In this document: piece by piece, positions 29,253-37,419 of the stretch
Position numbering within the stretch: the stretch's first letter is position 1
Layout: each line of letters begins with the position of its first letter
From: Salipiger pentaromativorans
GTDB lineage: Bacteria > Pseudomonadota > Alphaproteobacteria > Rhodobacterales > Rhodobacteraceae
Assembly: GCF_024721115.1 (NCBI RefSeq)
Contig: NZ_JAMDHK010000017.1
Location: 1 to 64,000, forward strand
DNA length: 64,000 nt
Direction of reading: 5' to 3'
Notes under the pieces: model-generated
The model's input: only the letters and a program-made list of their open reading frames with translations
Databases searched by the model: none
Told to the model about the DNA's origin: nothing
Made by a program: the position numbers and the translations under genes

Positions 29253-30779
29253 CTACCAGTCGTCCCCGTCGAGGAAGGCCCGCGCCGAGCGCATGATTGC
29301 CGCGCGCTCTTCGGGATCCTTCTTCGCGAGGTTGCCATAGATCAGCGACATGCGCCGGTTGTCGCGCAGCTTGTCCTCGTTCTCGATCAGGAAGTTCCAA
29401 TAGAGGTAGTTGAAGGGGCAGGCGTCGGGGCCGGTCTTCTGTTTCAGATCGTAGCGGCACCTGCCGCAGTAATCTGACATCCGGTCGATATAGGCGCCAG
29501 AGGCCGCATAGGGTTTCGAGCCCAGGCGTCCGCCATCCGCATGCATCACCATGCCATGCACATTCGGCAGTTCGACCCAGTCGAAGGCATCCGCATAGAC
29601 CGCGAGATACCATTCCTCGATCTGACGCGGTGCGATCCCGGCCAGCAGCGCGAAATTGCCAGTGACCATGAGCCGCTGGATATGATGCGCATAGGCGTTG
29701 CGCCGCGTGGTGCCGATGACCTCGGCCATGCAGCGCATGTCGGTCTCTCCGCCCCAGTACATCCAGGGCAGATCGCGCCCGGCGTTCAGAAAGTTGCTGT
29801 CGGCATAGCCCGGCATTTCGGTCCAGTAGATGCCGCGCACGAATTCGCGCCAGCCGAGGATCTGGCGGACAAAGCCCTCGACCGCGTTCAGCGGCGCCTG
29901 CCCGTCGCGCCACGCCGCCTCGGCGCGTTCGCAGACCTCGGCGGCGGTCAGCAATCCGATGTTGAGATAGGGCGAGATCAGCCCGTGGAAGAGGAAATCC
30001 TCTCCCGCCTTCATGGCGTCCTGATAATCGCCGAAACAGGGCAGGGCGTCGGAGATGAAATGGCGCAGGGCGCGCAGCGCATCCGCCCGCGTCACCGCCC
30101 AGCCGAACCCGTCGAGATCGCCGAAATTCCCGCCGAAGCGGTCGGCAACCAGCGTCAGAACCTCCTGCGTGACCGCATCGGGGCGAAAGCGCATCCGGTG
30201 CGGCAGGTCGAGTCCTTTGGGCAGGCGCTTGCGGTTCTGCTTGTCGAAATTCCAGGTGCCGCCCGCCGGGCCGTCACCTTCCATCAGCAGACCGCTGCGG
30301 CGGCGCATCTCGCGGTAGAAATACTCCATCCGTCCGGTCTTGTTGCCCGCCGTCAGCGCGGCGAAATCGCTCCGCGAGCAATAGAAGCGGTCGTCGTCGC
30401 GGATCTCGACCGGCAGGTCGAGGTCGCTTTCCCAGTCGCCCATCCTCTCCCAGACGCGCCACTCGCCCGGTTCGGTGGCGATGATCCGCTCCGGGCGGTG
30501 CCGCGCCACGGCACGGGCCAGCTCGCCCGACAGGCTGTGGCTGTTCTCGGGGTCGTCCAGCGGGACATAATCCACCGTCACGCCGCGCTCGCGCAGCTCC
30601 GCCGCGAAATGGCGCATCGCGGACAGGATCAGCGCGATCTTCTGCGGGTGATGCGGCACATAGGTGGTCTCGTCCCCGACCTCGGCCATCAGCACCACAT
30701 CGCCCTCGGCCAGATCGGCCAGCGAGGCGAGGCCGTGCGTCAGCTGGTCGCCCAGGACGGGTCGCAGGGTGCCCGTCAT
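29253..30779 (-). CDS. phrB: PhrB-type iron-sulfur (6-4) photolyase / cryptochrome-like protein
   Basis: The protein has 508 residues from the ATG at 30779. The N-terminal alpha/beta antenna domain (TLRPVLGDQL) is followed by the helical FAD domain. Four cysteines at 350, 438, 441 and 454 (in DMRCMAE, YCGRC and DACPFN) match the numbering I recall for the [4Fe-4S] ligands of Agrobacterium PhrB, which also supports this start. Members repair (6-4) photoproducts with blue light and bind dimethyl-ribityllumazine. A broken DUF2256 gene overlaps it upstream. It probably belongs to a light or photo-oxidative stress response. Confidence 0.92.
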   Translation of the reverse strand: MTGTLRPVLGDQLTHGLASLADLAEGDVVLMAEVGDETTYVPHHPQKIALILSAMRHFAAELRERGVTVDYVPLDDPENSHSLSGELARAVARHRPERIIATEPGEWRVWERMGDWESDLDLPVEIRDDDRFYCSRSDFAALTAGNKTGRMEYFYREMRRRSGLLMEGDGPAGGTWNFDKQNRKRLPKGLDLPHRMRFRPDAVTQEVLTLVADRFGGNFGDLDGFGWAVTRADALRALRHFISDALPCFGDYQDAMKAGEDFLFHGLISPYLNIGLLTAAEVCERAEAAWRDGQAPLNAVEGFVRQILGWREFVRGIYWTEMPGYADSNFLNAGRDLPWMYWGGETDMRCMAEVIGTTRRNAYAHHIQRLMVTGNFALLAGIAPRQIEEWYLAVYADAFDWVELPNVHGMVMHADGGRLGSKPYAASGAYIDRMSDYCGRCRYDLKQKTGPDACPFNYLYWNFLIENEDKLRDNRRMSLIYGNLAKKDPEERAAIMRSARAFLDGDDW

Positions 30780-30928: not shown

Positions 30929-31005
30929 GGGCGGGAAGATCCGCGAAGAGGGTGCAACTTTCCGGCGTACCATCCCGTATCTTCCGCAAAGAACGGAGGA
31001 CCGAT

Positions 31006-31407
31006 ATGCAGATCCTGACGCTTTACGGGGCCACGCTGGCGCTGTTTCTCATCATCGACGTGATCGGCATCAGCACGATCATCAAGCCGGTGTTCGAACG
31101 CCATGTCGGCGACATGCTCGCCGACCCGCTGCGGCTGGGGCCGGCGGCGGCCTTCTACCTCTTCTATATCGCGGGGCTGCTGTATTTCGTTTCGGTTCCG
31201 GCACTCAATGCGGGCCGTCCGGCGCAGGCGCTGCTGGGCGGGGCGTTGCTGGGGCTCATGTGCTACGGCACCTATGAGTTCACCAATCTCGCCACGCTGC
31301 GCGGCTGGTCGTTTCAGCAGGTGCTGATCGACACAATCTGGGGCGGGCTGCTGACCGGAGGTTCGGCCTGGGCGGGGGTCTGGATCGCGCAGAAACTGCA
31401 TGGCTGA
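31006..31407 (+). CDS. DUF2177 membrane protein
   Basis: This 133-residue protein has four hydrophobic helices, with [26 protein letters not shown] near the start, a [18 protein letters not shown] helix and [14 protein letters not shown], all typical of DUF2177. AACGGAGGA precedes the ATG. DUF2177 genes are often seen beside ECF-sigma stress loci and photolyase genes. The function is unknown. It is divergent from the DUF2256/photolyase pair. Confidence 0.88.
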
Positions 31408-31413
31408 GGCGGG

Positions 31414-32115
31414 TCAGGCCGAGCGGGGCCGCAGTGCCAGCGCGGCCAGAAGGACAAGCAGCGCGGCGCAAAGCGCGATCACCGGCAGGTTGCGCACCGG
31501 CAGGTTGGCGAGGATCACGCCGCCAAAGGCCCAGCCCACGGCGGCGGCATAGCTCAGCGCGCGCGGCCGGTGCCACAGCACCAGCGCCGCGATGGCGCCC
31601 AGCCCGGCGAGCAGCAGCAGCGCGGCGGCTTGCGGGCTCATCACGCCATAGCCGCTGAGCGTCGCGGCCACCGCCACGGCGCCCGCCGCCGTCAGCCACC
31701 CGGCGTAGAGCCCCACCGGCGCCCCGGCCCAGGGGCTGCGCGGCGCGCGCAGCAGGGCGTCGGTCGCGGCGGCGGCCATGAAGATGATCATCACCGTGGC
31801 CGCCAGCGGCGCGCTGTTCGCCACCGCGATCCAGAACACGCCCAGACCCAGGCTCACCGCCAGCGGCAGGCGCATCGCCTGCCACTCCGCATCGCGCCGG
31901 TGACGCCAGAGCCCGTAGCCCGCCCCCGCGATGAGCAGCAGAAAGATCGGCCCCCAGATCGCGAAGGCGGCGGGCAGGGGCTGCGCGGGCCAGAAGGCAT
32001 GCACCAGCGGGAACTGTACCGGAGACAGCCCCGCGAACCCGCCGCTCAACCCCGGCGAAAGCGCAAAGCCCAGGCTCAGCACCAGCACCAGCAGGGCGCG
32101 CCCCGCGCCCCTCAT
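31414..32115 (-). CDS. TspO/MBR-like tryptophan-rich membrane protein
   Basis: This 233-residue protein has about seven hydrophobic helices and the TspO-like motif FAIWGPIFLLLIAGAGYGLW near residue 50. It belongs to the longer, divergent branch of tryptophan-rich sensory proteins found near stress and carotenoid genes. It overlaps the SDR stop by ATGA and is the last gene of the five-gene lipid operon. Porphyrin or lipid binding is known for TspO; here the role is inference. Confidence 0.7.
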   Translation of the reverse strand: MRGAGRALLVLVLSLGFALSPGLSGGFAGLSPVQFPLVHAFWPAQPLPAAFAIWGPIFLLLIAGAGYGLWRHRRDAEWQAMRLPLAVSLGLGVFWIAVANSAPLAATVMIIFMAAAATDALLRAPRSPWAGAPVGLYAGWLTAAGAVAVAATLSGYGVMSPQAAALLLLAGLGAIAALVLWHRPRALSYAAAVGWAFGGVILANLPVRNLPVIALCAALLVLLAALALRPRSA

Positions 32116-32849
32116 CGCACCAGCCGCGCGGTCAGGCGCAGCGACAGCCCGTAGGACATCGACCGCAGCAGTTTCAGCGGCCAGGTGAGACGGCGGGGGA
32201 AATGCACCTCGAAGCGCCGCCCGTCCAGCCCGCGCAGGATCCGCCTCGCGGCCTCGTCGGGTTGCAGAAGGCCGGGCATGGCGAAATCGTTCCTCTCGGT
32301 CAGCCGCGTGTCGACGAAACCGGGGCTGATGAGGCGCACCGCGACCCGTGGCGCCAGCTCGGCCCGCAGGGTTTCGGCGAGGTTGATCACCCCGGCCTTG
32401 CTGGCGGAATAGATCTGGCCCTGCGGCAGCCCGACATAGCCCGCCACCGATCCGGTCAGCACAAGATCGCCGCCGTCACGCAGCAGCGGCGCGGCGGTCC
32501 GGGCGAAGTGGAAGGCGCCGGTCAGGTTCACAGTGACGATCCGGGCGGCGGTCTCCGGGTCGATCTCGGTCACCTTGCCGGGGTCGTAGAGCGCCGCCAG
32601 CGTGATCGCCTTGTCGAGCGGCCCGCCCTCGGCGATGCGCGCGGCGGCACGGGCAAGGCTCGTCAGATCCGCGACATCGACGGGCACCACCTCGGCGCGG
32701 CCGATCTCGTCTGCCAGCGCCAGAAGCGCCTCTTCCGACCGGGCCGACAGCACCAGCCGCGCGCCGCGCGCCGCATAGGCCCGCGCCAGAGCCGCGCCGA
32801 TCCCCTGCGAGGCGCCGGTGATCCAGATCCGTTCCGTAGGATCAGGCAT
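32112..32849 (-). CDS. Short-chain dehydrogenase/reductase
   Basis: The protein has 245 residues from the ATG at 32849, which overlaps the Cfa stop. It carries the SDR signature ITGASQGIGAALA for NAD(P) binding, catalytic Ser in VLTGSVAGYVG, YSASK for Tyr-x3-Lys, and the PGFVDT segment. It is the fourth gene of the oxidoreductase-DUF1365-Cfa-SDR-TspO operon and probably reduces or oxidises a lipid intermediate. An SDR occupies the same kind of position in other DUF1365/Cfa operons. Confidence 0.85.
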   Translation of the reverse strand: MPDPTERIWITGASQGIGAALARAYAARGARLVLSARSEEALLALADEIGRAEVVPVDVADLTSLARAAARIAEGGPLDKAITLAALYDPGKVTEIDPETAARIVTVNLTGAFHFARTAAPLLRDGGDLVLTGSVAGYVGLPQGQIYSASKAGVINLAETLRAELAPRVAVRLISPGFVDTRLTERNDFAMPGLLQPDEAARRILRGLDGRRFEVHFPRRLTWPLKLLRSMSYGLSLRLTARLVR

Positions 32850-34014
32850 GCGCCAGCCGGTATTGATAGACATCCGTGCGGCCGGATTCGAAACCGGCGA
32901 TGCAGGCGGCCAGATAAAACCGCCAGACCCGGATGAAACCGTCGTCGAAACCCAGCCCGCGCACCTCGGGCAGCCGCGCCTCGAACCGGCTCAGCCAGTC
33001 GCGCAGGGTGCGGGCGTAGTCGAGACCGAACCCGTGTGCGTCCTCGATCCGCAGCCCGGCCTTGCCCGCCAGCTCGCGAAAGACATCGGGCGAGGGCAGC
33101 ATGCCGCCCGGAAAGATGAAGCTGCGGATCATGTCGCCGCCCGCGCGGTAACGGTCGAAATAGCGGTCGCCCACGGTGATGGTCTGCACCATGGCGCGGC
33201 CCTTGTCCGACAGCACATGCGCCAGCTTTTCGAAATAGACCGGCCAGAAGCGTTCGCCCACCGCCTCGAACATCTCGATCGAGACCACATGATCGAAGCG
33301 CCCGTATTCGTCGCGGTAATCCTGCAGGGCGATCTCGGCATTGCGGCCCAGTCGGTCGCGGGCAAAGCGCGCCTGTTCATGCGACAGCGTCAGCCCCTTG
33401 GGCGCGAAATCCCCGCGTTGCAGGGCGCGTTCGGCAAAGCCGCCCCAGCCGCAGCCGATTTCCAGCACCCGGCCCGAGCGGCTTTCCAGCCCGTCGATGA
33501 TCCGGTCGTATTTGCGGGTCTGCGCCGCCGCGAGCGGATCGGGGGCCGCCGCATCCTCTGGCGCGTAGATCGCCGAGGAATAGGTCATCGTCTCGTCGAG
33601 CCAGAGCCCGTAGAACGCATTGCCCAGGTCGTAATGGGCCGAGATATTGCGCCGCGACCCGCGCCTGGTGTTGCGGTTGAACAGATACAGCGCGCGGATC
33701 ATCAGCGCCTGCAGCGGGCGACCGTACAGGAACGGCTCCAGCGCCGCTTCGTTGCGCAGCCCGAAGATCAGGAAGGCGGTCAGATCGCTGCTGTCGCACC
33801 AGCCGTCGCGATAGGCTTCGGTCAGGCCGATGTCGCCCCGCGCGGCGGCGGCCACAGCCGTGCGCCAGTCGCTGATGGTGAGATCCGCCTCGGGGCCGGG
33901 AGTCTTTCCCTCGTAGACTCTGATCTTGCCGTCGGGTGTGGTCAGGGTCAGCCGCCCGCAGGAGATCCGGTCGAGGCAGTGCAGCAGCTTGGTTTCGATC
34001 TGGCGTTCAAACAT
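32842..34014 (-). CDS. cfa: Cyclopropane/UfaA-type fatty acid methyltransferase
   Basis: This 390-residue SAM-dependent enzyme has motif I VLEIGCGWGGFAE near residue 180, the HYDLGN(A)FY segment near 128 and the FPGGMLPS segment near 298, all characteristic of the Cfa family. Beside a DUF1365 gene and an FAD oxidoreductase it matches the UfaA1/UfaM set that methylates unsaturated phospholipid acyl chains, giving methyl-branched or furan fatty acids rather than simple cyclopropanes. It overlaps DUF1365 by 8 nt. Expression is likely tied to the divergent ECF sigma factor. Confidence 0.88.
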   Translation of the reverse strand: MFERQIETKLLHCLDRISCGRLTLTTPDGKIRVYEGKTPGPEADLTISDWRTAVAAAARGDIGLTEAYRDGWCDSSDLTAFLIFGLRNEAALEPFLYGRPLQALMIRALYLFNRNTRRGSRRNISAHYDLGNAFYGLWLDETMTYSSAIYAPEDAAAPDPLAAAQTRKYDRIIDGLESRSGRVLEIGCGWGGFAERALQRGDFAPKGLTLSHEQARFARDRLGRNAEIALQDYRDEYGRFDHVVSIEMFEAVGERFWPVYFEKLAHVLSDKGRAMVQTITVGDRYFDRYRAGGDMIRSFIFPGGMLPSPDVFRELAGKAGLRIEDAHGFGLDYARTLRDWLSRFEARLPEVRGLGFDDGFIRVWRFYLAACIAGFESGRTDVYQYRLAHA

Positions 34015-34795
34015 CCTGTCTCACCCCGTCATTCGCCTCGGACACCGTCTGGGCGAGTTGCCTGGGTTTAGAATTAAATCGAACCCCGCGCAGAGCAAGT
34101 TTCAATGCCTGCCAATGGATCAGCGCAATCACCTTTTGCGCCTGAAACGCATGGCGCCACTGCGCCCGCGCCAGCCGCCCCGCCGTCAGCGGGCGCGCCG
34201 GGCCTGCCATAGAGGTTTGCAGCTTCACCTCGCCGCCCTCGCCGATCCAGTCGACCCAGGCGCCAAACCTGTCGGGGCCGGGATCGAAGCGGAACACATA
34301 GCGCCCCTCGCGCGGCAGGAAGGGCGAGACGTGAAAGATCTTCTCCCCCGAAATCCGGTCCGACCGCCCGATGGGCCGGTTGTCCGCGTGGCGGCAGAGG
34401 TAGAAATGCCGCTCGCCGAAGGTGTTGGAGACCTCGGCCAGCACCGCCCGCAGCCCCCGGCTGTCGCGCGCCAGCCAGAAGCTCACCGGGTTGAAGCCGT
34501 AGCCGGGGCTGCGCGGCAGGGTCACCAGCGTGACCTCGCAATGGCCGAGCCCCGCCGGATCGAGCTGCCCGGCGATAAAGCGGCTCAGCGGCTGCCCGTC
34601 GCGGTGGCCGTAATCGCGGGGACGGACCGACCAGAGCCCGCGCGCGTCGGGGCGGATCGGCAGCGCGCCCGCCTCGAACCGGGCGACCGGCAGGGCGAGG
34701 CAGGTCACGCTGTAGCGGAAGTCGCGCCGCACATCGCCCGAACGGGCATGCCAGACCCGGCAGTCCAGCAGCGCGCCATTCCAAAGGTCGGTCAT
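34007..34795 (-). CDS. DUF1365 domain protein
   Basis: The protein has 262 residues from the ATG at 34795, which overlaps the FAD oxidoreductase stop by ATGA. DUF1365 hallmarks are present: VWHARSGDVRRDFRYSVTCLAL, SPGYGFNPVSFWL, EVSNTFGERHFYL and KIFHVSPFLPREGRYVF. The family is uncharacterised biochemically but nearly always sits between an amine-oxidase-like FAD protein and Cfa, and is thought to help make modified fatty acids. Confidence 0.9.
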   Translation of the reverse strand: MTDLWNGALLDCRVWHARSGDVRRDFRYSVTCLALPVARFEAGALPIRPDARGLWSVRPRDYGHRDGQPLSRFIAGQLDPAGLGHCEVTLVTLPRSPGYGFNPVSFWLARDSRGLRAVLAEVSNTFGERHFYLCRHADNRPIGRSDRISGEKIFHVSPFLPREGRYVFRFDPGPDRFGAWVDWIGEGGEVKLQTSMAGPARPLTAGRLARAQWRHAFQAQKVIALIHWQALKLALRGVRFNSKPRQLAQTVSEANDGVRQDV

Positions 34796-36105
34796 TCCGC
34801 CGCCTCGAGCCATTGCGAGGGCGCGGGCCGTGGCGGCGCCTCCGCCGCCCAGGGGTCGGCGCCGAGCGGCCAGTCGATCCCCATGGCCTGCGCCACCCTC
34901 AGGGCCGACAGCACGCCATCCTCGTGAAAGCCGTAGCGCGTCCAGGCCCCGGCGTAGTAAACGCCGCCGCGGCCCTGCAGCGCCGGCAGGCGCGCCTGCG
35001 CCGCTAGCGTCGCGGCATCGAATTGCGGGTGATGCAGCACCGCCTCGTCATGGATGTCGCGCGGCTCGGTCTCGGGGTTCAGCGTCACGATCAGCGGGCG
35101 GTCGGTGTCGAGCGGTTGCAGCCGGTTCATCCAGTACGACAGGCTGATGGGCCGGTCGCTCAGCAGCTGCGGCGCCTGCGTGACATAGTTCCACGACGAC
35201 CAGATGCGGCGACGTTTCGGCATCAGCGCGGTGTCGGAATGCAGCACCATGCGGTTGGCCTCGGTGCGGAAGGCGCAAAGCATGGCCCGTTCCTGCGCAT
35301 CGGGCCGGTCGAGCAGGCGCAGGGCCTGCGGCGCATGCGTGGCCAGAACCACCCGGTCGAAGCGCTCGGGACCGCGCGGCCCCACCACCGTCACCCCGGT
35401 GCCGTCGCGCAGGACGCGCTGCACCGGGCTCGACAGCCGGACCTCGGCTTTGGTGGCGCGCAGAAGCGCCTCGACATAGCGCGCCGAGCCGCCGCGCACG
35501 GTCAGCCACTCGGGCTGGTCGTTCACCGTCAGCAGCCCGTGATTGTCGAAGAAGCGCACGAAAGAGGCGGCGGGAAAATCCAGCATGTCACGGGTCGGCG
35601 TCGACCAGATCGCGCCCGAGATCGGCATCAGAAAGCGGTCGCGGAATGCGCTGCCCAGCCCCAGCCGGTCGATCAGCGCGCCGATCGAGCCCGCGTCCTC
35701 CGCATGCGCGGGCGCCTGGCGGAAAAACCGCAGGATGTCGCGGATCATGCGCCAGTGTCCGGGATCGGTGAGCAGGCGCGGCTGGGCGAACATGTCGCGG
35801 AGCGTCGTGGTGCCGAATTCCAGCGCCCCGCCGCCGAAACTGGCCGCAAAGCTCATGTCGCTCGGCGCGAGATCCACGCCCAGATGCTCCAGCAGGGGGA
35901 TGAACAGCGGATAGGTGCGGCGGTTGCAGACGATAAAGCCGGTATCGACCGCGACATCGCCCACCTGCGCCGTGCGGGCATGACCGCCGGGGCGCGCCCC
36001 GGCCTCGAAAAGCGTCACCTCGTGATGCGGTGCCAGCAGCCATGCCGTTGCCAGCCCGGAAATGCCGCTTCCGATCACGGCGGTTTTATTGCCCCTGGTT
36101 GTCAC
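34792..36105 (-). CDS. FAD-dependent amine-oxidase-like oxidoreductase (lipid operon, UfaD-type context)
   Basis: This 437-residue flavoprotein has the FAD-binding GSGISGLATAWLL at residues 11-25, the GG doublet ARPGGHARTA and a C-terminal GVYYAGAWTRYGFHEDG that closes the FAD site. Homologues precede DUF1365 and Cfa in proteobacteria and mycobacteria (the Rv0449c type). In Rhodobacter a member of such an operon takes part in furan fatty acid formation by desaturating methylated acyl chains. It is the first gene of a five-gene overlapping operon and is divergent from the sigK-like gene by 100 nt. Confidence 0.87.
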   Translation of the reverse strand: MTTRGNKTAVIGSGISGLATAWLLAPHHEVTLFEAGARPGGHARTAQVGDVAVDTGFIVCNRRTYPLFIPLLEHLGVDLAPSDMSFAASFGGGALEFGTTTLRDMFAQPRLLTDPGHWRMIRDILRFFRQAPAHAEDAGSIGALIDRLGLGSAFRDRFLMPISGAIWSTPTRDMLDFPAASFVRFFDNHGLLTVNDQPEWLTVRGGSARYVEALLRATKAEVRLSSPVQRVLRDGTGVTVVGPRGPERFDRVVLATHAPQALRLLDRPDAQERAMLCAFRTEANRMVLHSDTALMPKRRRIWSSWNYVTQAPQLLSDRPISLSYWMNRLQPLDTDRPLIVTLNPETEPRDIHDEAVLHHPQFDAATLAAQARLPALQGRGGVYYAGAWTRYGFHEDGVLSALRVAQAMGIDWPLGADPWAAEAPPRPAPSQWLEAAE

Positions 36106-36127
36106 CCTAACCTCGCTCTGCCATTGT

Positions 36128-36160
36128 CACATCCGAAGTTACGAAGGCCGCGCCGAAAGA
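36128..36160 (+). promoter_or_regulatory. Candidate autoregulated ECF (SigK-like) promoter
   Basis: CACATCC at 36128-36134 and CCGAAAGA at 36153-36160 are 18 nt apart, upstream of the sigma gene. I recall CCATCC and CCGAATCG as the mycobacterial SigK -35 and -10 elements; both resemble these. Found by eye, untested. Confidence 0.35.
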
Positions 36161-36205
36161 GTTGCGCGCGCCTGCAGAAAAACATCGCGGATCTGTTCAC
36201 GCCCC

Positions 36206-36751
36206 ATGACCGACGAGACCGAAGAGCTTTCGGCCCTGCTGGCCCGCGTGGCGCTGCGCGACCGCCGTGCCTTTCAGCGGCTCTACGATGCCGCCGCGCC
36301 GCGGCTCTTCGCGATCTGCCTGCGCATGCTCAAGGACCGTTCCGAGGCCGAAGACGCCTTGCAGGAGGTGTTTGTGCGGATCTGGCACAATGCCGGGCGC
36401 TACCGGCCCGAGCGCGGCAACGCCATGGCCTGGCTGAACACGGTGGCGCGCAATCACGCCATCGACCGGCTGCGCAGCGCCCGCCGTGGCGCGTTGGGGA
36501 TCGAGGTCGCCGAGGTCGTGGCCGATCCCGGCCCCGGCCCCGAGGCCAGCGCGATCAGCCGCTCGGAAACCCGCCGGATCGAGGATTGCATGTCCACGCT
36601 CATGCCCGACCGGGCCGAGGCGGTGCGGCTGGCCTATCTCGACGGGGCGAGCTATCTTGAACTCTCGGAACGCTACGCGATCCCGCTCAACACGCTCCGC
36701 AGCTGGCTGCGCCGCAGCCTGCTGCAACTTCGCCGGTGCCTGACGCCATGA
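36206..36751 (+). CDS. sigK: ECF sigma factor of the SigK type
   Basis: The protein has 181 residues from the ATG at 36206. Sigma-2 spans about residues 25-95 (LKDRSEAEDALQEVFVRIWHNA, then NTVARNHAIDRLRS) and sigma-4 about 125-178 with the helix-turn-helix YLELSERYAIPLNTLRSWLRRSL. Cys128 (EDCMSTL) and Cys178 (LRRCLTP) are 50 apart. I recall a regulatory disulfide between Cys133 and Cys183 in mycobacterial SigK, the same spacing and surroundings. It overlaps the anti-sigma gene by ATGA. Confidence 0.85.
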   Translation: MTDETEELSALLARVALRDRRAFQRLYDAAAPRLFAICLRMLKDRSEAEDALQEVFVRIWHNAGRYRPERGNAMAWLNTVARNHAIDRLRSARRGALGIEVAEVVADPGPGPEASAISRSETRRIEDCMSTLMPDRAEAVRLAYLDGASYLELSERYAIPLNTLRSWLRRSLLQLRRCLTP

Positions 36752-37419
36752 CCGGATTGACCGAAGACGATATTGCGCTCGCCGGAGAATACGCGCTGGG
36801 CGCGCTGCCGCCCGAAGAGCGGGCGGCGCTGTCCCGCCGCGCCGAGACCGACCCGGCCTTTGCCGCCGAGGTCGCCGCCTGGGAAACCGCGCTCGACCCG
36901 CTCAATGCCGAGCTGCCCCCTGTCGCGCCGCCTCCGGCCGCGTGGCGCGGGCTTGAAAAGCGGCTGTTCCCGACCGCCGAACGGCCCGCCTCGCCCTGGC
37001 GCTGGCTGGCCGCCGCCTCGGGCCTGTCGGCAGCGGTTCTGGCGGCAGTGCTGTGGCTCGGGCAACCGGCGCCGCCGCGCCCCGAGGCGCTGTGGATTTC
37101 CGACATGGCCTCGGAAGACGGGTCGGTGCGGGTGGCGGCGCTCTACGATGCGGCACGCGGCGAGATGCGTGTGTCCATGGGCGGCGCCGGGCCGGGCGCG
37201 AACCGGGATTTCGAGCTCTGGCTGCTGGGCCCCGATGGCGGCGCCGTCTCGCTCGGCCTGCTGCCGCGCGACGGGCAGGCCGCCATGGCCATCCCCGAGG
37301 GGCTGCGCGGCGCCATGGCCGCCGCGACCCTCGCCATCACCGACGAGCCCGAGGGCGGTGCCCCGGGCGGTGTGGCCACCGGCCCGGTGATCGCCACGGC
37401 TGTGTTGCGCCGGATCTAG
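36748..37419 (+). CDS. rskA: Membrane anti-sigma factor of the RskA type
   Basis: The protein has 223 residues. The N-terminal sigma-binding part (about 1-90, LTEDDIALAGEYALGALPPEERAALSRRAETD) has no zinc-binding HxxxCxxC, so it is not ChrR-like. One membrane helix follows (about 92-112), then a periplasmic RskA domain (ISDMASEDGSVRVAALYDA ... DFELWLLGP). RskA proteins hold SigK at the membrane and release it after regulated proteolysis. It overlaps the sigma gene. Confidence 0.87.
   Translation: MTGLTEDDIALAGEYALGALPPEERAALSRRAETDPAFAAEVAAWETALDPLNAELPPVAPPPAAWRGLEKRLFPTAERPASPWRWLAAASGLSAAVLAAVLWLGQPAPPRPEALWISDMASEDGSVRVAALYDAARGEMRVSMGGAGPGANRDFELWLLGPDGGAVSLGLLPRDGQAAMAIPEGLRGAMAAATLAITDEPEGGAPGGVATGPVIATAVLRRI

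What the first reader, a model, noticed from the sequence alone, without database searches (positions are those of the whole stretch)
31414..37419. Alphaproteobacterial counterpart of the mycobacterial sigK-rskA locus, with a conserved redox cysteine pair
The ECF sigma factor has Cys128 and Cys178 at the start and end of sigma-4, in EDCMSTL and LRRCLTP. From memory, mycobacterial SigK has a regulatory Cys133-Cys183 disulfide with identical spacing in similar surroundings, and its locus holds an amine oxidase, DUF1365 and the UfaA1 methyltransferase. All three are divergent from the sigma gene here. The anti-sigma factor is RskA-like, with no zinc motif, unlike the ChrR partner of the singlet-oxygen sigma factor that sits beside a similar lipid operon in Rhodobacter sphaeroides. 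This suggests a redox-gated, membrane-tethered switch for fatty acid modification outside actinobacteria.
Basis: partly seen in the sequence, partly recalled or inferred. Interest (0 to 1): 0.75.

Follow-up and report, generated by a model that had tools for sequence, protein, structure and literature searches.

The report
SigK-type switch on furan-lipid operon
An alphaproteobacterium, probably a Salipiger, carries a SigK-RskA regulator pair, a kind best known from tuberculosis bacteria, where most of its relatives use a different, light-stress regulator for genes predicted to make protective furan lipids; the pair itself is a known type, but the apparent swap suggests what SigK might sense.

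Summary
The sigma factor (36206-36751) has Cys128 and Cys178, aligned with SigK Cys133 and Cys183. The overlapping anti-sigma gene has an RskA_C domain and no Cys or His. Divergent from it lie amine-oxidase, DUF1365 and CMAS genes, best read as ufaD-ufaO-ufaM of the furan fatty acid pathway. What I did not find in the papers searched is a regulator replacement. In the window's UfaD clade, 20 of 35 ufaD genes have a G(A/C)AAC-N16-18-CGT promoter, shared with 45 of 50 fasciclin genes in SigK-RskA loci; in the sister Rhodobacterales clade 13 of 26 have RpoE-type TGATC-TAA sites. ChrR over its cut-off was found in 0 of 34 against 17 of 17 genomes tested. SigK-ufa linkage needs 5 changes on the sigma tree, so it probably arose repeatedly. 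The two sigma systems share targets (furan lipids, fasciclin), so photo-oxidative lipid damage is a testable candidate for SigK's unknown signal. Regulation, redox gating, lipid product and signal are inferred.

The parts
36206..36751 (+). SigK-like ECF sigma factor, 181 aa, Cys128 and Cys178
   Evidence: tree
36748..37419 (+). RskA-type anti-sigma factor, 223 aa, overlaps the sigma gene; N-terminal LAGEYALGAL, one hydrophobic stretch (read by eye), RskA_C domain, no Cys/His
   Evidence: N-terminal motif compared by eye with the published AS19-1 consensus
36138..36166 (-). predicted SigK-class promoter of the ufaD operon, CGCAAC-N17-CGTAAC
   Evidence: the pattern has 8 matches in the whole genome against 1 for the reversed control
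34792..36105 (-). ufaD-like flavin amine-oxidase-family protein (predicted methyl-acyl desaturase)
   Evidence: clade; function by homology and gene order to PMC7380195
34007..34795 (-). ufaO-like DUF1365 protein; the only match to it in the genome at E<=1e-10
32842..34014 (-). ufaM-like CMAS-family SAM methyltransferase
   Evidence: below the cut-offs of the three curated cyclopropane synthase models that matched
32112..32873 (-). short-chain dehydrogenase, overlaps ufaM and the next gene
31414..32115 (-). 233-aa hydrophobic protein, no Pfam match; its Paracoccus counterpart is annotated tryptophan-rich sensory protein
30953..30981 (+). second predicted SigK-class promoter, TGCAAC-N17-CGTATC, upstream of DUF2177
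   Evidence: 18 of 33 clade-A relatives have the motif there
31006..31407 (+). DUF2177 membrane protein, predicted second target
29253..30779 (-). DPRP-family photolyase/cryptochrome-like protein beside the operon (start codon chosen by eye); no motif upstream in relatives (0 of 12)

Best explanation
The locus is a SigK-RskA-type sigma/anti-sigma pair that controls the divergent furan-fatty-acid operon ufaD-ufaO-ufaM-SDR-(membrane protein). In this clade (found in Salipiger, Paracoccus, Defluviimonas, Mangrovicoccus, Sinirhodobacter, Thioclava) SigK-type control has taken the place that RpoE-ChrR holds in other Rhodobacterales. Proposed working: RskA, anchored in the membrane, holds the sigma factor through its cytoplasmic N-terminus; on envelope or photo-oxidative lipid stress RskA is cut or changes shape, the sigma factor is freed and starts transcription at (T/C)G(A/C)AAC-N17-CGT promoters upstream of ufaD and DUF2177; the products make furan fatty acids that scavenge reactive oxygen in the membrane. 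The Cys128-Cys178 pair sets how sigma-4 engages RskA. Shown here: family membership, cysteine conservation, promoter class, ChrR/SigK distribution, gene content. Inferred from homology: enzyme functions, RskA release, which sigma reads the promoters. Hypothesis: the signal.
For: Kinship. Cysteines: 109 of 109 with RskA. Promoter: seen by eye in clade A, then counted in 20 of 35 ufaD upstreams (window included) against 0.36 in shuffles, with TGATC-TAA in 0 of 35; sister Rhodobacterales 1 of 26 and 13 of 26, other taxa 0 of 18 and 0 of 18. The motif was defined on ufaD, so the independent tests are fasciclin genes in RskA-linked loci, 45 of 50 against 1.15, and DUF2177, 18 of 33 in clade A against 0.73, 0 of 22 in the other loci. 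Of the 34 clade-A loci, 13 of 13 with the sigma next door have the motif before ufaD or before a fasciclin gene that leads into ufaD; 10 of 21 without it next door do. ChrR over its cut-off: 0 of 34 clade-A genomes, 17 of 17 sister-clade genomes. SigK-like sigma somewhere in 32 of 35 clade-A genomes. UfaD tree: clade A 38 rows, support 100; sister clade 53 rows, support 100.
Against: No expression data. The own genome has a second SigK-like pair (C4:150373, 52% identity) that could read the same promoters. 11 of 21 clade-A loci without a neighbouring sigma lack the motif. Outside clade A only 1 of 7 ufaD genes linked to a SigK-like sigma has the motif (Rhizobium L144). The clade pattern is phylogenetically confounded: one replacement or one operon transfer would give it. 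The window's own ufaD promoter is a weak match (CGCAAC, CGTAAC). Sigma genes themselves mostly lack the motif (6 of 99 against 2.0 in shuffles; clade A 0 of 13), so no autoregulation is visible, unlike M. tuberculosis. The window's genome has two partial, below-cut-off ChrR-profile matches (39.3 and 27.9 bits).
Confidence: 0.72

Rival explanations
1. The pair next door is incidental: the operon is read by the second SigK-like sigma of the genome, or by both.
For: Paralogue C4:150373; 10 of 21 clade-A operons without a neighbouring sigma still carry the motif; G088 has the operon and, at E<=1e-30, only one SigK-like gene, on another contig.
Against: The motif is present in 13 of 13 loci with the sigma adjacent, and the ufa-linked sigmas of the window's clade group together (15 rows, support 98), as expected for a dedicated regulator.
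Confidence: 0.2
2. The cysteine pair is structural (a fixed part of sigma-4 or of activation by RskA) and not a redox sensor.
For: It is conserved in 109 of 109 RskA-linked sigmas whatever the neighbouring targets. Changing both cysteines to serine abrogated activation in M. smegmatis, and the Yersinia C181S form had minimal activity in E. coli (PMC7509140).
Against: That paper also reports, from Shukla et al. 2014, that the oxidised form stabilises the SigK-RskA complex and a reducing agent releases SigK.
Confidence: 0.45
3. The operon makes another modified lipid (methyl-branched or cyclopropane) rather than a furan fatty acid.
For: CMAS-family enzymes have several products (family knowledge); I saw no product reported for this clade; clade A is a separate UfaD clade from other Rhodobacterales.
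Against: The order ufaD-ufaO-ufaM matches R. palustris RPA2571-2569, whose three genes suffice for furan fatty acid synthesis in an R. sphaeroides mutant (PMC7380195, passages); the methyltransferase falls below the cyclopropane synthase cut-offs.
Confidence: 0.2
4. An ECF11 RpoE-ChrR pair, the usual controller in Rhodobacterales.
For: Same operon position as in R. sphaeroides; sister-clade loci have an ECF11-like sigma there and ChrR in the genome.
Against: SigK match about twice the score, tree, no ChrR over cut-off in the genome, no Cys or His in the anti-sigma, no TGATC-TAA site.
Confidence: 0.01

Closest known systems
Mycobacterium tuberculosis SigK-RskA (PMC7509140 passages; 4nqw)
   Same: Sigma family, Cys pair 50 residues apart, membrane RskA that does not rely on zinc; sigK expression runs from the Rv0449c promoter, an amine oxidase gene (its identity is recalled)
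   Different: There sigK is autoregulated via that promoter; here sigma and operon are divergent and no motif precedes the sigma. The ufa link probably arose separately.
Rhodobacter sphaeroides RpoE-ChrR (ECF11) with RSP1087-1091
   Same: Its regulon holds ufaD, ufaO, a symporter, an SDR, the RSP_2144 methyltransferase and a fasciclin gene, RSP_1409 (PMC7074977 Table 1)
   Different: Distant sigma branch, zinc/cupin anti-sigma, TGATC promoter; ChrR over cut-off in 0 of 34 clade-A genomes
R. capsulatus RCAP_rcc00699/698, published as RpoE-ChrR but SigK/RskA-like
   Same: Rhodobacteraceae SigK-like pair, induced by singlet oxygen, next to an operon with cryB
   Different: R. capsulatus is reported to lack RSP1087-1091 homologues, so no furan-lipid link there
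mpt83-sigK-rskA cassette of Yersinia and others (PMC7509140 passages)
   Same: Same kind of sigma/anti-sigma pair, cysteine requirement
   Different: mpt83 (fasciclin) as partner; no fasciclin match in the window's genome
Streptomyces sp. NBC_00069, Caballeronia sp. NK8 and Burkholderia anthina plasmid loci
   Same: sigK-like gene and anti-sigma with FAD oxidoreductase, DUF1365 and CMAS genes
   Different: DUF1295 genes, lipocalin genes in the two Burkholderiales; other sigma clades; no clade-A promoter motif before ufaD

Membership tests
SigK-RskA pairs (ECF18/19) | Sigma sequence nearest SigK | tested here: met
   nearest among solved structures; on the SigK side of the tree
SigK-RskA pairs (ECF18/19) | Cys pair at SigK 133/183 positions | tested here: met
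   conserved 109 of 109
SigK-RskA pairs (ECF18/19) | Adjacent anti-sigma with RskA_C domain and no zinc ligands | tested here: met
SigK-RskA pairs (ECF18/19) | Disulfide alters anti-sigma binding | not testable with these tools
   needs protein chemistry
mpt83-sigK-rskA cassette | Fasciclin gene beside the pair | tested here: not met
   no fasciclin match in the genome; present in five Paracoccus relatives and pPZ02. Not filed here.
RpoE-ChrR (ECF11) | ChrR-type zinc/cupin anti-sigma | tested here: not met
RpoE-ChrR (ECF11) | TGATC-TAA promoter at ufaD | tested here: not met
Furan fatty acid operon | ufaD, ufaO, ufaM homologues in order | tested here: met
   families; order as in R. palustris RPA2571-2569
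Furan fatty acid operon | Furan fatty acid produced | not testable with these tools
   needs lipid analysis

The most novel reading that the evidence does not exclude
SigK-RskA and RpoE-ChrR, distant sigma factors with unlike anti-sigma sensors, have converged on one regulon (furan fatty acids and fasciclin proteins, with methionine sulfoxide reductase or photolyase genes often nearby). They answer the same stress, so the still unknown signal of SigK, the mycobacterial one included, is photo-oxidative or peroxide damage to membrane lipids.
Probability: 0.35. Interest if true: 0.78.

Novelty: new variant of a known kind. Interest (0 to 1): 0.55.

Why it matters
The signal that starts the SigK-RskA cascade is called still unknown in PMC7509140 and its stimuli obscure in PMC9861118. 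If SigK-type control has replaced the singlet-oxygen regulator RpoE-ChrR on the same operon in environmental alphaproteobacteria, that signal can be sought there with simple light and sensitizer experiments. Hints in print: the R. capsulatus SigK-like pair is induced by singlet oxygen, and the fasciclin genes mpk83 and mpk70 of M. kansasii, putative SigK targets, rise with light.

Tried and rejected
The ECF11 reading was rejected. A promoter before ufaM was considered (12 of 33 clade-A loci match) and rejected: the matches lie within about 170 bases before ufaM and most read as variants of one conserved coding stretch of ufaO (my reading). The motif match at C4:150799 lies inside the paralogue's sigma gene. 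Autoregulation of sigma genes: 6 of 99 against 2.0 in shuffles, clade A 0 of 13. MsrB genes as direct targets: 1 of 12 against 0.3. Looking upstream of ufaD in 25 of the clade-A loci, I saw no common substitute regulator where the sigma is missing (by eye on mechanical open frames). Solved-structure searches gave no match for UfaO, none of weight for the anti-sigma, and LkcE for UfaD. No structure prediction was run.

Limits. Loci from the genome search carry about 1.5 kb on each side, so ufa neighbours further off were not seen for L004-L032 (unless refetched) and L169-L196. Both trees are quick IQ-TREE runs with SH-aLRT support only; on the sigma tree the set I named as outgroup was not one side of a branch (2 rows on the wrong side). 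In one search, 11 short-flank fasciclin rows and 19 of the 33 sigmas with neither RskA nor the pair were left out.
Full report
What is there. At 36206-36751 lies an ECF sigma factor of 181 aa and at 36748-37419, overlapping, its anti-sigma factor. Divergently on the minus strand run an amine-oxidase-family gene, a DUF1365 gene, a CMAS methyltransferase, an SDR and a hydrophobic protein. Next to them are DUF2177 (31006-31407, +) and a DPRP photolyase/cryptochrome-like gene (29253-30779, -).

Kinship. The sigma factor matches SigK 4nqw with 115 bits and R. sphaeroides RpoE with 59.5, 39.8% against 26.9% identity over the aligned parts, with C128 and C178 on SigK C133 and C183. The anti-sigma has the RskA_C domain and neither Cys nor His. 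On a quick tree of 115 sigmas, RpoE, eleven ufa-linked sigmas without an RskA hit and one very long-branched row (L166_13239) lie on one side of the root branch (support 87); the window's sigma lies with SigK and the RskA-linked sigmas on the other. It sits among 15 ufa-linked sigmas of Salipiger, Paracoccus and kin (support 98).

Cysteines. After removing identical sequences, 109 of 109 sigmas with an RskA hit within 1.5 kb have both cysteines (the window's own included); of 34 without such a hit, 1 has them, and most have Ala at the first position. The sample was drawn by similarity to the window's sigma. This agrees with PMC7509140 (section 11 read; otherwise passages): 94% in ECF18, 56% in ECF19, under 2% elsewhere. 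That paper places M. tuberculosis SigK in ECF18 and the Yersinia one in ECF19, whereas PMC7406223 (passages) uses AS19-1 for M. tuberculosis RskA, so I write ECF18/19.

The operon. UfaD (RSP1091), UfaO (RSP1090, with DUF1365) and UfaM make methyl-furan fatty acids in R. sphaeroides, and R. palustris RPA2571, 2570 and 2569 suffice for the pathway in an R. sphaeroides mutant (PMC7380195, passages). The window has the same three families in that order. DUF1365 has a single match in the genome at E<=1e-10. On a quick UfaD tree of 115 rows the window's clade (A, 38 rows, support 100) and other Rhodobacterales (53 rows, support 100) are separate.

Regulator replacement. Beside ufaD, sister-clade loci have a sigma with a weak match to the window's. 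In 13 of the 34 clade-A loci a SigK-like pair sits there. ChrR (TIGR02451 over cut-off) is in 17 of 17 sister-clade genomes and 0 of 34 clade-A genomes tested. A SigK-like sigma is somewhere in 32 of 35 clade-A genomes; of the three without, two (L074, L091) also lack the motif at ufaD and one (L066, a MAG) has it. In the family sample of 198 genomes, comparing by eye the positions that print (both lists are cut), I saw a SigK-like sigma next to DUF1365 only in the window's genome.

Promoters. Clade-A ufaD upstreams share (T/C/A)G(A/C)AAC-N16-18-CGT in 20 of 35 (window included), shuffles giving 0.36; TGATC-N17-20-TAA occurs in 0 of 35. In 26 sister-clade Rhodobacterales the counts are 1 and 13, in 18 loci of other taxa 0 and 0. 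I first saw the motif by eye in the clade-A sequences, so counts on ufaD describe rather than test. Independent sets: fasciclin genes in RskA-linked loci 45 of 50 (shuffles 1.15); DUF2177 in clade A 18 of 33 (0.73), other loci 0 of 22. As a positive control, the non-clade-A sigma genes have TGATC-TAA upstream in 12 of 29 (0.33). Many sequences are close relatives, so these are not independent events. In five Paracoccus loci a fasciclin gene leads into ufaD and carries the motif. Outside clade A, 1 of 7 ufaD genes linked to a SigK-like sigma has the motif, so this promoter type is seen here only in alphaproteobacteria. In the window's genome a stricter pattern has 8 matches (reversed control 1): before ufaD, before DUF2177, before a DUF7282 exported protein gene on another contig, inside the paralogue's sigma gene, and four not assigned.

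Repeated recruitment. SigK-like pairs sit with ufaD-DUF1365-CMAS in Streptomyces, Caballeronia, Burkholderia, a Rhizobium plasmid and two unnamed Pseudomonadota (L203, L204). Others sit with fasciclin, MsrB, or neither. Merging all ufa-linked rows, the label needs at least 5 changes on the sigma tree, also when only loci with long flanks count as unlinked. Many forks there are weakly supported.

Meaning. The R. sphaeroides RpoE regulon holds the ufa genes and a fasciclin gene, RSP_1409 (PMC7074977 Table 1). The SigK group has the same pair of targets: here by promoter, and in M. tuberculosis by published SigK control of mpt83 and mpt70 and of the Rv0449c promoter. The R. capsulatus SigK-like pair rises 3.7 and 3.4 log2 units on photo-oxidative stress. 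In M. kansasii mpk83 and mpk70 rise about 6- and 3-fold with light. In R. sphaeroides furan fatty acid synthesis is itself needed to activate RpoE on singlet oxygen (PMC6852236, passages). So the candidate signal is oxidative damage to membrane lipids, relayed to RskA. This last step is hypothesis.

What is new. Searches of the held library listed no paper that I recognised as linking SigK-RskA to furan fatty acids; I saw listings, and passages of seven papers, not every paper. Veyrier 2008 and Dufour 2008 were not held, and the first may discuss SigK-linked lipid genes. The sigma type, the cysteines and the enzymes are known; the regulator replacement and the shared regulon appear to be new.

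Noticed in passing
L066 (PALD01000025.1): A contig filed as a Cytophagaceae MAG carries a UfaD nearly identical to that of Salipiger thiooxidans (L094), so the bin is probably mislabelled or contaminated.
   Followed up: partly
L203 6402 and 17038: A ufa cluster of another Pseudomonadota genome is flanked by two SigK-like sigma genes; for the second, the cysteine pair was not seen at the aligned positions and no RskA hit lay in reach.
   Followed up: no
L063 8693 and 9591: In Salipiger bermudensis HTCC2601 the ufaD match falls in two overlapping open frames, so the gene may be frameshifted or the sequence in error.
   Followed up: no
L149 (G000:C4:150373-150909): A second SigK-RskA pair in the window's own genome, with no fasciclin, MsrB or ufa match within the fetched 15 kb; its targets are unknown.
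   Followed up: partly
G000:C3:88511-88539 (L224): A motif match lies before a 137-aa exported DUF7282 protein, a possible further target.
   Followed up: partly
window 31006-31407 (DUF2177): DUF2177, of unknown function, often lies near ufa operons in both clades and has its own SigK-class promoter in 18 of 33 clade-A loci; it may belong to the same response.
   Followed up: partly
PMC7509140 and PMC7406223: The two papers number the ECF group of M. tuberculosis SigK differently (ECF18 against group 19).
   Followed up: no
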